56,325 bases of DNA from an uncultured Elusimicrobiales bacterium. Lineage in GTDB: Bacteria > Elusimicrobiota > Elusimicrobia > Elusimicrobiales > Elusimicrobiaceae. The stretch covers positions 1 to 56,325 of the forward strand of contig CALVFA010000019.1 in NCBI GenBank assembly GCA_944326725.1, in the 5' to 3' direction. The translations under genes were made by a program, and so were the position numbers. Positions 48,873 through 55,402 of the stretch are shown piece after piece. The notes below the pieces were generated by a model that saw only the letters and a list, made by a program, of their open reading frames with translations, did not search any database and was not told where the DNA came from. Every line of letters begins with the position of its first letter. The stretch's first letter is position 1.

Positions 48873-49379
48873 ATGAAAAACAAACATAAGCTTTTTACCC
48901 AAATGGCGGAGCTGGTAGCGGCCCAATCCACTTGCTGCCGTATGCAGGTGGGGGCGGTATTGGTCAAAGACAGCCGCGTTATCAGCATTGGCTTTAACGG
49001 CTCTCCCTCTGGGCAGGAGCATTGTGAAGACCATTTTGCAGAGCTGTACCAAACCGCCTTTAAAAACCAATTTGCCACGTATGAAGATTTCCGTGCCAGC
49101 CGCACTTTTTACGACGCCCATGGCAAATGGTCCATTGAAAATGAACTGCACGCGGAACAAAACGCCATTTTGTTCGCGGCCAAAAACGGCATTGCCACCG
49201 CGGGGAGCACGCTTTACGTTACCTATTCTCCCTGCGTACACTGCGCCAAAGTAATTGCCAGCGCCGGCATTGTGCGGGTGTTCTACAAAAACTTATACGA
49301 CCGCAGCCAAGACGGCCTTATCTTTTTGGATAAAAACGGCATTGAGTGCCGCCAGCTGACGGAAGAAGAACTGGCCTGA
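48873..49379 (+). CDS. Deoxycytidylate (dCMP) deaminase family protein
   Basis: A 168-residue zinc deaminase of the dCMP deaminase/ComEB group, which turns dCMP into dUMP to feed dTMP synthesis. The zinc site is His93 with the proton-shuttle Glu95 (HAEQN) and Cys121-x2-Cys124 (SPCVHC). VGAVLVKDSRVISIGFNG is the family opening. I start at the ATG at 48873; a TTG five codons earlier would overlap the previous gene's end. No strong ribosome binding site, consistent with coupling to the DUF486 gene eight bases before. Confidence 0.9.
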   Translation: MKNKHKLFTQMAELVAAQSTCCRMQVGAVLVKDSRVISIGFNGSPSGQEHCEDHFAELYQTAFKNQFATYEDFRASRTFYDAHGKWSIENELHAEQNAILFAAKNGIATAGSTLYVTYSPCVHCAKVIASAGIVRVFYKNLYDRSQDGLIFLDKNGIECRQLTEEELA

Positions 49380-49386
49380 TTTACAC

Positions 49387-49415
49387 AACGGCCCCGCCCA
49401 AAGCGGGGCCGTTTT
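49387..49415 (+). terminator. Deaminase gene terminator
   Basis: AACGGCCCCGC and GCGGGGCCGTT perfect stem followed by TT, eight bases after the stop. Confidence 0.85.
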
Positions 49416-49545
49416 GCCTCTGCTGGGTAGATGAAAATAAAAGCCCCTTTTTGCCAGAACACCAAAGGCCAATATCCGTCTTTTTTGCGGGAAACCAAAA
49501 AGCAAGCAGAGCAGTCCAAGAGTTCCAAAGAAAGTTTTTTTTTAA

Positions 49546-49551
49546 TATAAT
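49546..49551 (+). promoter_or_regulatory. -10 box giving a leaderless TPR protein transcript
   Basis: Perfect TATAAT seven bases before the ATG at 49559; no ribosome binding site. Confidence 0.55.
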
Positions 49552-49558
49552 AAAGTAT

Positions 49559-50200
49559 ATGGAAAACACGAATCAAGAATCTCTGTCTTCTTACGTTTCA
49601 AAACTCATCGATGTTTGCAAAGCCCACAAAAAGGCCCTGTTGGTTGCGGTGGTACTGATTGCCGTAATCGGCGGCGGGTGGAGCTTGTATTCATCTCACA
49701 AAGAAAAGACCTTGCAGGACTCTTGGGCTCAGTTTTACAACGCCCAAGTCATGCTCTTGACGCAAGGCTCTGCGGCAGGTTTTGCCGCTATTGACCAGCT
49801 CAACGCCGCCTATCCCAATACAGACGCCGCTTACTACGGGCGCCTGATGCAGGCGGATTTATTGTTTACGGAAGAAAATTATGCCCAATCCGTAGACATA
49901 TATAAGGAACTGCTCAAAGCCAAAAACCCGCATATACGCATGATTGCCGCCGTATCATTGGGCGCGGCACAACAGGCGATTAAAGAATATGCCGCTTCTA
50001 TTGAAACACTGCAAAATTTCATTGCGGCCAATCCCTCCAGCTTTGCATTGCCGCAGGCTTATTTCTCTTTGGCTCTAAGCCAGGAGCTCTCCGGTGATAA
50101 AGCCGCCGCGCTGGAAACCTACAAAAAAGTCTTAGAAGATTACACCAAAACGTATTTCGGTGTATTTGCCAAAGACAAAATCAATCAATTAAGCAAATAA
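49559..50200 (+). CDS. Membrane-anchored TPR protein (YfgM-like)
   Basis: A 213-residue protein with one N-terminal span (about 25-44) and an outer domain of TPR repeats, including LLFTEENYAQSVDIYKELL and SLALSQELSGDKAAALETYKKVL. The layout matches YfgM-like ancillary proteins that sit next to the Sec translocon or outer-membrane assembly machinery; identity is not certain. I chose the ATG at 49559, placed seven bases after a TATAAT; a longer frame upstream runs through the preceding terminator. It lies before the FadL-like gene but has its own terminator. Confidence 0.72.
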   Translation: MENTNQESLSSYVSKLIDVCKAHKKALLVAVVLIAVIGGGWSLYSSHKEKTLQDSWAQFYNAQVMLLTQGSAAGFAAIDQLNAAYPNTDAAYYGRLMQADLLFTEENYAQSVDIYKELLKAKNPHIRMIAAVSLGAAQQAIKEYAASIETLQNFIAANPSSFALPQAYFSLALSQELSGDKAAALETYKKVLEDYTKTYFGVFAKDKINQLSK

Positions 50201-50271: not shown

Positions 50272-51513
50272 ATGCAAAAAACACTTAAGACGTTAGCCGT
50301 ACTCGTATTGCCGGTGTTATTCTGCGCCGATGTGCAGGGCGCCGGTTTTGCGCTGTATGAATACAGCGCCAGAACCACCGCTATGGGCGGTGCCACGATG
50401 GCCAACAAAGCAGAAGCGGCCTCTTTGGCGGTCAACCCCGCGTTGATTACCGAACTGGAAGGCACGCAGGCCCAGGTAGGTTTGACCATTGTTACCGCAG
50501 ACGCCAAGACAAGCGTAGCCGGCTCTGCCCGCACGCTGAAAAATGATGTATGGTATTTGCCCAATTTCTTTATTACCCGGAAATGGAGCGACCAAGTATC
50601 CTTTGGTTTGGGCGGATATTCCCGCTACGGTTTAGGCGGCCAGTACAACGGCCCAGTACAGACCTGGCCCGGCAGCAATTTGGCTTATAAAGTAAGCGTG
50701 GAAACCTTTTCTTTCACGCCGACCATTGCCGTAAAAGCCAATGATGAATTATCCGTAGCCATGGGATTGGAAGCGATGATAATCGGCTTCTCTCAAAACT
50801 CTTTCTCTACCGCGGCAAGAGGACCCTATGAAGTCAGCGGCTCCGGCGTAAGCTGGGGGGGCAACTTCTCCTTAATTTACAAACCGTTGTGGGCGGAAAA
50901 ATGGGCCTTTGGTGCCATGTACCGCTCCAAAGTCAAACAGAACTTAAACGGCCGCATTAACGCCGGCAACATGACTATCCCGGACCCGATTAATATCCAC
51001 AGCGGAGACGCCGAAGGCGCCATCGCTTTGCCCGACAGCATTTCTGCCGGTATTTCTTATCAAGCGACGGATAAATGGGTACTGGAAGCCGGTATCGTGG
51101 GCACGTTCTGGAGCTCTTACGACCAAATCTTAATCCAGTACAAAGACAACAGCGCCAACCCCTTTGTATACAACAACAAGAACTACAAAGACGTGTACCG
51201 CTTAAACTTCGGCACGGAATACCAGCTCAACAAAAACTGGGCCTTGCGCGCCGGATACGTATTTGATAAATCCCCGATTAATAGTAAGGAAATGGACACC
51301 CTGGTCCCGGTGGACGACCGCCACATTGCCAGCGTAGGCGTGGGCTATGCCCAAGACAACTGGACGCTGGACTTTGCTTACGCTCATGTGTTTGCCAAAG
51401 ACTTGAGCGGTATTTCCGGTCAAATGTCTAGTGTCATGGGAACACCGATTGCCGTCAAATACACCGACGGAAAGAGCGATATGTTCTCTCTGACGTTTGG
51501 TTATAAATTCTAA
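50272..51513 (+). CDS. FadL/OmpP1-family outer-membrane transporter
   Basis: A 413-residue outer-membrane beta-barrel. Signal about 1-23 (cut after VQG). The mature N-terminus AGFALYEYSARTTAMGGA is the plug segment typical of FadL, and the NPA motif (VNPALITEL) follows. The protein ends in an aromatic strand (LTFGYKF) as needed for barrel assembly. Family members take up long-chain fatty acids or other hydrophobic compounds. AAGGAC precedes the ATG. Single gene with strong terminator. Confidence 0.88.
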   Translation: MQKTLKTLAVLVLPVLFCADVQGAGFALYEYSARTTAMGGATMANKAEAASLAVNPALITELEGTQAQVGLTIVTADAKTSVAGSARTLKNDVWYLPNFFITRKWSDQVSFGLGGYSRYGLGGQYNGPVQTWPGSNLAYKVSVETFSFTPTIAVKANDELSVAMGLEAMIIGFSQNSFSTAARGPYEVSGSGVSWGGNFSLIYKPLWAEKWAFGAMYRSKVKQNLNGRINAGNMTIPDPINIHSGDAEGAIALPDSISAGISYQATDKWVLEAGIVGTFWSSYDQILIQYKDNSANPFVYNNKNYKDVYRLNFGTEYQLNKNWALRAGYVFDKSPINSKEMDTLVPVDDRHIASVGVGYAQDNWTLDFAYAHVFAKDLSGISGQMSSVMGTPIAVKYTDGKSDMFSLTFGYKF

Positions 51514-52686: not shown

Positions 52687-53270
52687 AGGCAGTTCTATTT
52701 TACTATTTTTTAGTATTCCGCCGGGATTTTGGAGCCTAGTCAAAGGTTTTGAGACTTTTTATCAGCTCTTTTCTCCTAATTGCAGCTAAGTTTGATTTTT
52801 CAGTAGCCTTGAAGCCCTCAATATACCCTATTTTTGTTTTAAAGCATTTTCCGCTAATGTCAAAAACCAATATAACTGAATATTTTGTGAAAATTAATTC
52901 CAATAAAAAACAGGGGGAAAAGAGGGGGAAATACTTTTATTTAAAAATACAAATTCGAACCTGATTTTGCAAAAAAATATTTTGGTTTTTCTTATCCTGT
53001 TTTTAACAAAAAACGACCCCAAATTACAAAATGTTAAAAAAATAAAGCCTGTTTTTGCTGTTTTTGAAAATAAAAAAATCATTACCAGTTTTTCGGACTC
53101 TGCAAAACAACCTCCAAAGAGCCATTTAAAGATACGCAAAAATCTAAGTCTTAATAGCATATTAGTATTTTTTAATCCTCTTTCAGGCCTGTTTTTTCAT
53201 ACGTCCGCTTATATTTTGAAAGGCAAAACTGCTGTTTTCTCGTCGGAGAAATAGACTTGTGCACAATTTG
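52687..53270. other. AT-rich non-coding region between mutY and the unknown DNA-binding gene
   Basis: About 580 bases clearly richer in A and T than the rest. Several short open frames exist on both strands but have poor composition, no ribosome binding sites and overlap each other. TTTTGCAAAAAAATATTTTGG near 52965 resembles palindromes found further right. Confidence 0.5.
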
Positions 53271-53335
53271 TGACATATGTTGACATATAATTGACATATA
53301 TTGACATATGTCAAAATATTTCTTATTATATGTCA
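53271..53335. promoter_or_regulatory. Phased TGACATAT operator array
   Basis: TGACATAT occurs at 53271, 53281, 53292 and 53302, spaced 10, 11 and 10 bases, so all four face the same side of the helix. The last forms the palindrome TGACATATGTCA (53302-53313), and an inverted ATATGTCA lies at 53328-53335. The array covers the -35 and -10 boxes of the next gene, which suggests a repressor binding cooperatively, perhaps the gene's own product. Confidence 0.75.
53301..53329 (+). promoter_or_regulatory. Promoter of the unknown DNA-binding gene
   Basis: TTGACA, 17 bases, TATTAT: one of the best matches to a housekeeping promoter in the window, embedded in the operator array. Expected transcription start is near 53336. 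Confidence 0.65.
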
Positions 53336-53387
53336 AAAGGCTGTGTAAATCCCGGTGGATAACCCTTTTAAAAGGAGATAAAATCTT

Positions 53388-54203
53388 ATGGCGTCTGATA
53401 TGGAAAACAAGGTCAAAATACGCTTTAAATTTCGCTCCGGAGAGGAGTTTGAAGCAGAAGGCAGCCCTGATTTTATTGAGAAACAGCGGGCGGACTTCCT
53501 GCATTTAATTGGAAAAGAAAAAAAGGCTCCTGCGTGCCCGCCCTCCACTTTTAATCACCCGCAATACACCCCAGCGGAAAGACCGCAGCCAACACCGGCA
53601 GCCCCAGGCCACACCTTATCCACCCAAACAGATGAAAGCTTTTCTTCCGCTCCGGCTGCCCTGCGAAGAGGCCATGAGTCAGCCTCGGCCCCGCTCCAGG
53701 CACAAGAAGTGCCGGACGGAGCCTTTCCAGCCCTCTCTCCGGCGCCGCATTTTGACAGCCCCAGCCGCACCGCTTCAGAAGGATACCACTCCTCTCATTT
53801 TGCATTTTCTCAGGGGCCAGAAAGGGTTTCTTCCCCGCAGAATAACTCTTTAGAGCAGGGGGACAACCTGCGCTGGTGGGAAGAAATTGCAAAAATAGAG
53901 AATGAACACGTCTTTTTACGCAAAAAAAGCCGCTTGCTTTCTCCCGAAACAGCCGCCCTGCTGTTAATCGGGGCGGCACAGAGCCTACTCAAAACTCCGC
54001 AATACAGTGCCTTGGCTCTGTCCAAGTCTTTAGCCAAATCCGGCTACGGAGGGGGGCGGTTGGACCGTATTTTGGGCGGAGAAATCAAAAGGGGGACTAT
54101 CCTGGCCTTTGGAAGTAAGCGATCCCGCGCTTACCGCCTGTCTGATGAAGGGTTTGCCAGGGCTTTTGTCTTGGCCGGGAAAATAGCCGAGGAGTGGCAT
54201 TAA
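53388..54203 (+). CDS. Unknown protein with winged-helix-like C-terminus
   Basis: A 271-residue protein I do not recognise. Residues 1-45 form a small charged beta-rich module (VKIRFKFRSGEEFEAEGSP). Residues 46-160 are a flexible P/S/A-rich linker. Residues 162-271 look folded: a WWEEI helix, LLIGAAQSLL, then ALSKSLAKSGYGGGRLDRIL resembling a helix-turn-helix and SRAYRLSDEGFARAF resembling the wing and last helix. This suggests a DNA-binding protein with a separate N-terminal interaction module. AAAGGAGA lies ten bases before the ATG. It is flanked by phased operator boxes upstream and iterons downstream, so regulator, replication initiator or partition protein are all possible. Confidence 0.6.
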   Translation: MASDMENKVKIRFKFRSGEEFEAEGSPDFIEKQRADFLHLIGKEKKAPACPPSTFNHPQYTPAERPQPTPAAPGHTLSTQTDESFSSAPAALRRGHESASAPLQAQEVPDGAFPALSPAPHFDSPSRTASEGYHSSHFAFSQGPERVSSPQNNSLEQGDNLRWWEEIAKIENEHVFLRKKSRLLSPETAALLLIGAAQSLLKTPQYSALALSKSLAKSGYGGGRLDRILGGEIKRGTILAFGSKRSRAYRLSDEGFARAFVLAGKIAEEWH

Positions 54204-54240
54204 TACTCCAATCCGCCCAAACCCCACACACCAATCCCTT

Positions 54241-54350
54241 TTTTACAGCCCAAATACCCTGAATTTGGGGGCCTATTTTACAGCCAAACACCCTGAGCTT
54301 GGTCCTATTTTACAGCCCAAACGCTCTGAACCAGGGCCCTATTAAGGGAT
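54241..54350. repeat. Three iteron-like direct repeats
   Basis: TTTTACAGCCCAAATACCCT at 54241, TTTTACAGCCAAACACCCTG at 54276 and TTTTACAGCCCAAACGCTCT at 54308, spaced 35 and 32 bases, each followed by a GG..CCTA end. They start 37 bases after the stop of the unknown gene. Confidence 0.8.
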
Positions 54351-55052: not shown

Positions 55053-55208
55053 TTTTAGCTGTTTTTGCTACCACTATGGGCCGAACAGGGGTCTTTTATC
55101 TGCTAGATAGTTCTCCTATCCTTGTTTTAGTTTTATCTTAGGCTTAAACAATATGCCTTGAGAGTACGCTGTTGTCTTATTTGATATCAAGAGAAGGATA
55201 TTTTAGGG

Positions 55209-55402
55209 GATAGTATAAAGGCAGTTTGGGAGTATAGTATAGGTCGGACAATCTGCGGTGTGCCAGCAATTTGGGGTACTATAAGGCGGTTTGAGAATAT
55301 AGTATAGGAGATTTTTTGGGGGTATAGTATAAAAGGTGAAGTTTGCACACACTTTAGCTTGCAACGGTATAGTATAGGCGGTATTGAGGGTAGCATAAAA
55401 GG
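55209..55402. repeat. Seven-copy TATAGTATA box array
   Basis: Boxes of the form GGTATAGTATARRGG are centred at 55213, 55237, 55279, 55302, 55327, 55372 and 55393. The gaps of 24, 42, 23, 25, 45 and 21 bases are close to two or four helical turns, as if two boxes were missing. The core is a near-palindrome. The surrounding sequence has no gene. Confidence 0.82.

What the first reader, a model, noticed from the sequence alone, without database searches (positions are those of the whole stretch)
53271..53335. Helically phased operator over a strong promoter
Four TGACATAT boxes at 10-11-base spacing, one palindromic end and one more inverted box cover a TTGACA-N17-TATTAT promoter. Same-face spacing of this kind is used by ribbon-helix-helix or partition proteins that spread along DNA. 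It lies 53 bases before an unknown DNA-binding-like gene.
Basis: partly seen in the sequence, partly recalled or inferred. Interest (0 to 1): 0.66.

Follow-up and report, generated by a model that had tools for sequence, protein, structure and literature searches.

The report
Conserved self-control switch beside DnaA sites
A row of identical short DNA sites on one face of the helix covers the promoter of a previously unnamed DNA-binding protein of Elusimicrobia; the row and the gene occur together, once per genome and flanked by DnaA-type sites, so it is most likely the switch by which this protein controls its own gene.

Summary
In detail: six exact TGACATAT boxes (four direct at 10/11/10 spacing, two inverted) overlie TTGACA-N17-TATTAT. 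In 1000 dinucleotide shuffles of this intergenic region, no 8-mer exceeded four copies in 65 nt. The downstream gene (53388-54203) is an orphan, single-copy protein of class Elusimicrobiia with no Pfam, NCBIfam or PDB sequence match. It is predicted to be a small N-terminal bba domain, a disordered linker and a winged helix; it is not ribbon-helix-helix.

The box array is a property of this gene. A sequence model built from one genus finds it directly upstream in 53/53 gene-positive genomes (23 from another family) and in 0/8 gene-negative ones. Exact paired TGACATA boxes occurred nowhere else in 61 genomes. DnaA-box-like 9-mers flank the array across the class (65 seen, 3.3 expected). In one related genus the boxes also mark the promoter of the neighbouring outer-membrane-protein operon.

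Best reading: an autoregulatory operator, with DnaA as a likely co-regulator. I tested and rejected the idea that the locus is the chromosomal origin: GC skew turns at dnaA, not here. Partition with spreading is not supported by anything found. Binding itself is inferred, not shown.

The parts
53138..53173 (.). Conserved upstream motif AAAAATCTAAGTC...TATTAGTATTTTTT (imperfect inverted repeat, function unknown)
   Evidence: AAAATCTAA and TTATATTAGATTTTT blocks conserved in most of 28 genus sequences; weak hairpin in the window copy
53237..53250 (+). TTCTCGTCGGAGAA inverted-repeat motif, core CGTC(G/T) nearly invariant
   Evidence: short hairpin, z -2.1
53257..53265 (+). DnaA-box-like 9-mer TTGTGCACA (consensus TTATNAACA), starts 14 bp upstream of box 1
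   Evidence: Position conserved across the class; the window copy itself is degenerate (2 mismatches to TTATCCACA)
53271..53278 (+). TGACATAT box 1
   Evidence: conserved in 28/28 as TNNCATA
53281..53288 (+). TGACATAT box 2
53292..53299 (+). TGACATAT box 3 (least conserved box in relatives)
53302..53309 (+). TGACATAT box 4, overlaps the -35 element; left half of palindrome TGACATATGTCA
53306..53313 (-). TGACATAT box 5 (inverted, palindrome right half)
53328..53335 (-). TGACATAT box 6 (inverted), overlaps the -10 end and the expected transcription start; nearly invariant in the genus
53301..53306 (+). -35 element TTGACA
   Evidence: conserved with N17 spacing
53324..53329 (+). -10 element TATTAT
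53354..53362 (-). DnaA-box-like 9-mer TTATCCACC in the 5' leader; relatives often have a second copy 13 bp (start to start) upstream (degenerate here, 53341-53349)
53372..53377 (+). AAGGAG, probable ribosome-binding site for the 53388 ATG
   Evidence: sequence
53388..54203 (+). Gene X: orphan protein of 271 aa; bba mini-domain (residues 9-43), Pro-rich disordered linker (44-153), winged-helix domain (154-270)
   Evidence: AlphaFold2 with a 49-row alignment, pLDDT above 90 in both domains; 149 of 295 phylum genomes

Best explanation
The array is the autoregulatory operator and promoter of gene X. Winged-helix protein X binds TGACATA boxes as phased protomers along one face of the DNA; the fourth box and the two inverted boxes overlap the -35, the -10 and the expected start, so occupancy should exclude RNA polymerase and hold X at a set level. 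DnaA, through boxes placed at a fixed distance beside the array, probably couples this promoter to DnaA availability. In at least one related genus X also acts on the neighbouring outer-membrane-protein operon. Shown: the sites, their phasing, their one-to-one linkage to the gene, their conservation, and the DnaA-like sites. Inferred: that X and DnaA are the proteins that bind, and that the effect of X is repression.
For: The array model built from 28 same-genus sequences finds it directly upstream of X in 53/53 gene-positive genomes, 23 of them from another family (E at most 0.0035), and at no better than E 0.006 in the 8 gene-negative genomes. TGACATA-N3/4-TGACATA: 32 hits in 19 of 61 genomes, all directly upstream of X, reversed control 0. 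Four-box pattern: once per genome, only here. TGACATATGTCA in the genus: 15 of 15 copies are at this locus. The element is recognisable in E. minutum and in families f2, f7 and f8. The product is predicted to be a winged helix with an invariant RLDR helix and a GxKRxRxY wing, with PDB resemblances to MarR/ArsR/PadR-type repressors. DnaA-like 9-mers: 65 observed against 3.3 expected, 43/48 loci; tandem pairs in relatives have 2-4 bp gaps, near the 2-3 bp that E. coli DnaA prefers (PMC11317965). Second box group at the neighbouring OMP operon promoter in 6/6 loci of genus g5.
Against: No binding data. A conserved promoter under another regulator would also give element-gene linkage. Box 3 is lost in some relatives, and in families f8 and f13 the array is weak. 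The window's own DnaA-like boxes are degenerate (TTGTGCACA, TTATCCACC). Foldseek E-values for the full-length window model do not pass 0.001.
Confidence: 0.72

Rival explanations
1. The boxes are bound by a different transcription factor and gene X is only its most conserved target.
For: Linkage of site and gene is equally expected for a dedicated target; the extreme conservation of boxes 4 and 6 is partly the promoter itself.
Against: A separate factor would normally have other targets: exact paired boxes are found nowhere else in 61 genomes, and in genus g5 the only other group lies beside X. Element and X are missing together in 8 genomes.
Confidence: 0.13
2. An iteron-plasmid-like replication or copy-control module: DnaA boxes, iteron-like repeats over the promoter and a winged-helix protein gene; a secondary replicator or DnaA-titrating site in the chromosome.
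For: The anatomy parallels iteron origins (DnaA boxes plus iterons bound by winged-helix Rep proteins, PMC4980987); DnaA-like sites are strongly enriched.
Against: Not the main origin: cumulative GC skew turns at dnaA in G029 (219813) and E. minutum (dnaA at 586), and does not change sign at this locus in G034, G030, G029 or G014. No Rep_3 match, no plasmid, phage or viral relatives. Boxes are one turn apart, not about two.
Confidence: 0.08
3. A centromere-like partition site on which the product nucleates and spreads.
For: Phased boxes; the predicted winged helix resembles AspA of pNOB8 (TMt 0.77), which binds upstream of its own gene and spreads (PMC5120986).
Against: No parA or parB among the adjacent ORFs. 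Neighbours are TPR_21, OMPP1 and mutY. Dispensable: absent from several genomes over 90% complete. AspA recognises one 23-bp palindrome, not four direct repeats; many repressors match equally well.
Confidence: 0.05

Closest known systems
MarR/ArsR/PadR-type winged-helix autorepressors
   Same: Winged-helix fold predicted; operator over the gene's own -35 and -10, with a palindrome across the promoter
   Different: No sequence match to any such family; four direct boxes at one-turn spacing rather than one palindrome; extra N-terminal bba domain and long disordered linker
Iteron plasmid rep-ori control regions (P1, F, pSC101)
   Same: DnaA boxes beside direct repeats plus inverted copies over the promoter of a downstream winged-helix DNA-binding protein gene
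   Different: Chromosomal, conserved across a class, not at the GC-skew origin; single winged helix, no Rep_3 homology; 10-11 bp instead of roughly 17-22 bp repeats; no plasmid relatives
AspA of archaeal plasmid pNOB8
   Same: Winged helix that binds upstream of its own gene; best coverage among small PDB winged helices (TMt 0.77)
   Different: No parB or parA partners, different site, no sequence homology found
DnaA-regulated promoters with double DnaA boxes (E. coli DnaA regulon)
   Same: Tandem TTATCCACA-like 9-mers with 2-4 bp gaps near a promoter
   Different: Combined here with a second, dedicated array of TGACATA boxes

Membership tests
Autoregulated winged-helix transcription regulator | Winged-helix DNA-binding domain | tested here: met
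   AlphaFold2 pLDDT 95-98 for residues 161-270 with wHTH topology; Foldseek hits almost all winged-helix regulators. Prediction, not a solved structure.
Autoregulated winged-helix transcription regulator | Operator sites at its own promoter, conserved with the gene | tested here: met
   53/53 and 0/8; exact paired boxes only here
Autoregulated winged-helix transcription regulator | The protein binds that operator and changes transcription | not testable with these tools
   Needs gel shift, footprint and reporter
MarR, ArsR or PadR family | Sequence match to the family models | tested here: not met
   No such Pfam or NCBIfam match in any of 18 members; fold resemblance only
Ribbon-helix-helix regulator | RHH fold or Pfam RHH match | tested here: not met
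   Predicted bba plus winged helix; no RHH match
ParABS or AspA-type partition system | ParA and ParB partner genes beside the DNA-binding gene | tested here: not met
   Adjacent ORFs are TPR_21, OMPP1, mutY in the window and OMPs in relatives; distant par genes were not searched
ParABS or AspA-type partition system | Spreading of the binder from the site | not testable with these tools
   Needs footprint or ChIP
Chromosomal origin (oriC) | Located at the cumulative GC-skew minimum | tested here: not met
   Minimum at dnaA in G029; no sign change at the locus in G034, G030, G029 or G014
Iteron replicon (Rep_3 type) | Rep initiator homology (two winged helices) | tested here: not met
   No Rep_3 match; one winged helix predicted
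DnaA-regulated promoter | DnaA boxes at the promoter beyond chance | tested here: met
   65 against 3.3 expected over 48 loci; the window copy itself is degenerate
DnaA-regulated promoter | DnaA binds and alters expression | not testable with these tools
   Needs ChIP or footprint

The most novel reading that the evidence does not exclude
A chromosomal, vertically inherited control module of the Elusimicrobiia in which an orphan winged-helix protein and DnaA assemble on one composite element (DnaA boxes plus one-turn iterons), working like a plasmid initiator-control circuit and tying the protein's level to the replication cycle.
Probability: 0.15. Interest if true: 0.75.

Novelty: new variant of a known kind. 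Interest (0 to 1): 0.5.

Why it matters
It gives a first, directly testable operator for an unnamed protein family that is single-copy in much of a little-studied bacterial class (including, by inference, the cultured Elusimicrobium minutum), and links it to DnaA and to neighbouring outer-membrane-protein genes. If DnaA does act here, it would be a cell-cycle-coupled regulatory circuit conserved across a class. If not, it is still a clear case of autoregulation through helically phased direct repeats.

Tried and rejected
Chromosomal origin: suggested by DnaA boxes and a late skew change in the window; rejected by GC skew and dnaA position in relatives. Structured RNA: only a sub-threshold snoRNA match in the window stretch. 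Mobile origin: no plasmid, phage or viral relatives of the G046 homologue or the family alignment. Defence protein: none. Known family: no credible Pfam, NCBIfam, PHROG or PDB sequence match. The Pfam KAR9 and PspA hits fall in the low-complexity linker or are far below cut-off. A search of GTDB contigs with the single protein found only one close relative, so the genome search was used instead. My early note that neighbours are not conserved was wrong: TPR_21-OMPP1-mutY-X is kept in the genus and TPR_21-OMP-OMP-X in another family, though not in E. minutum.

Full report
OBSERVATION. The window holds six exact TGACATAT boxes between 53271 and 53335 and no other exact copy. Four are direct repeats at 10, 11 and 10 bp; two are inverted, one of them making the palindrome TGACATATGTCA with box 4. 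They overlie TTGACA-N17-TATTAT, 11 of 12 consensus matches. In 1000 dinucleotide-preserving shuffles of the 644-nt intergenic region, no 8-mer of any sequence reached more than 4 copies in 65 nt.

THE GENE. The 271-aa product has no credible Pfam match, and its homologues none in NCBIfam or in PDB sequences. It is nevertheless well conserved: 53 of 61 relatives have it, as do 149 of 295 genomes across the phylum, usually once per genome. One of these genomes is a single 1,643,562-base contig with dnaA at 586, which I take to be Elusimicrobium minutum Pei191 (inference from its size). AlphaFold2 gives an N-terminal strand-strand-helix unit (residues 9-43), a disordered Pro-rich linker and a C-terminal winged helix (154-270), with confidence above 90 in both domains; a short homologue gives the same picture. 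The most conserved residues are an RLDR motif in the putative recognition helix and a G-x-K-R-x-R-x-Y wing. Fold searches return ordinary winged-helix regulators; the strongest is a PaaX-like protein at E 8e-4, with AspA of pNOB8 among the better-covered small folds. It is not ribbon-helix-helix.

THE ELEMENT BELONGS TO THE GENE. Upstream regions of 28 homologues from the same genus align over about 200 nt. A sequence-only model of the 110-bp element (A4, R1), trained on that genus alone, finds the element directly upstream of the gene in all 53 gene-positive genomes, including 23 of another family (E at most 0.0035). The 8 gene-negative genomes give nothing better than E 0.006. The within-genus hits are partly circular, because the model was trained there; the 23 are not. 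TGACATA-N3/4-TGACATA occurs 32 times in 61 genomes, every time directly upstream of this gene, with no hit for the reversed pattern. The four-box pattern is unique to the locus, and in the genus so is TGACATATGTCA (15 of 15). The four-box architecture with 10-11 bp spacing is visible in E. minutum (10, 11, 10) and in f2 members G045 and G046 (11, 11, 10). It fades in families f8 and f13.

DNAA-LIKE SITES. In 260 nt upstream of the gene in 48 loci there are 65 9-mers within one mismatch of TTATCCACA, against 3.3 expected from the rest of the same loci; 43 loci have at least one. In many loci one sits 14-15 bp before the first TGACATA box. In other families exact tandem pairs occur (for example TTATCCACAGGTTATCAACA in G046), with gaps of 2-4 bp; E. 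coli DnaA prefers pairs 2 or 3 bp apart (PMC11317965). In the window itself the copies are degenerate, so DnaA action on this particular copy is less certain than for the family.

NOT THE ORIGIN. DnaA boxes and a skew change in the last kilobases of the window suggested oriC. The test went against it. dnaA lies on another contig from the gene in the assemblies where both were placed. In G029 the cumulative skew minimum (219813) falls inside dnaA. In E. minutum dnaA is at 586 and the locus at 904,528, on the far side of the chromosome, where sampled skew has already turned negative. rplB is transcribed away from dnaA in both. At the locus itself skew keeps its sign in four genomes.

A LOCAL REGULON. 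In genus g5 of the other family, six of six loci carry a second group of TGACATAT boxes about 3 kb upstream, between a TPR_21 gene and an outer-membrane-protein gene (Alginate_exp-like in two of the loci scanned), near that gene's own promoter-like sequence; elsewhere in these 4.4-4.7 kb loci such boxes are almost absent. The window has the corresponding neighbours, TPR_21 (49346-50200) and OMPP1 (50272-51513), and TPR_21-OMPP1-mutY-X order is kept in G034, G030 and G014, but without a box group at OMPP1 in the window. So X probably controls itself everywhere, and an adjacent outer-membrane operon in some lineages.

MECHANISM. Most likely X binds the phased direct boxes cooperatively and the two inverted boxes over the -35, -10 and start, repressing its own promoter; DnaA sits at fixed positions beside the array as co-regulator. 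The one-turn spacing puts protomers on one face. Sites, phasing, linkage and conservation are shown; the identity of the binders and the sign of regulation are inferred. Rivals are another factor (0.13), an iteron-like replication or DnaA-titration module (0.08) and partition with spreading (0.05).

NOVELTY. Autoregulation by a winged-helix protein is a known kind. The protein family appears unnamed in the libraries searched, and the composite of DnaA boxes with one-turn direct repeats is an unusual variant, reminiscent of iteron-plasmid control regions (PMC4980987) without membership in that family. Literature searches on Elusimicrobium origins and regulators returned nothing on this locus, but the library held is incomplete.

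Noticed in passing
G000:C59:12246-12274; L169 1420-1710; G034:C1:188228-188580; G029:C4:118400-118660: A second DnaA-box cluster in 18 of 25 genus genomes (TTATCCACA-N11-GTTATCCACA); in the three copies read it continues with TTATCCACA..TTATCCACA..TGTGGATAA and lies upstream of a lipoprotein-like gene, together with a CGTCGGA/CTCGTCG motif like the one at 53237-53250. Possibly a DnaA-titrating or DnaA-regulated site.
   Followed up: partly
L173:611-690 and equivalents in L174-L178: TGACATAT boxes at the promoter of an outer-membrane-protein operon, followed by a long leader of about 250 nt with no Rfam match; the leader could hold an undescribed structured RNA.
   Followed up: partly
window 53138-53173: Conserved AAAAATCTAAGTC...TTATATTAGATTTTT imperfect inverted repeat about 130 nt upstream of the boxes, conserved in most genus members; role unknown.
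   Followed up: partly
window 55194-55390: Several imperfect copies of a GTATAGTATA-containing 26-nt repeat in the 2-kb non-coding end of the contig.
   Followed up: no
window 54234-54330: Three tandem-like copies of TATTTTACAGCCCAAA just after gene X.
   Followed up: no
G000:C51:22263-22988 and equivalents: DnaA/AAA+-like segment (DnaA model positions 99-298) inside open frames of about 900-1600 aa in the genus and E. minutum: an unusual large protein.
   Followed up: no
G034:C1:216652-216677: One inverted pair of TGNCATAT boxes about 2.6 kb downstream of gene X in G034; a possible further target.
   Followed up: no
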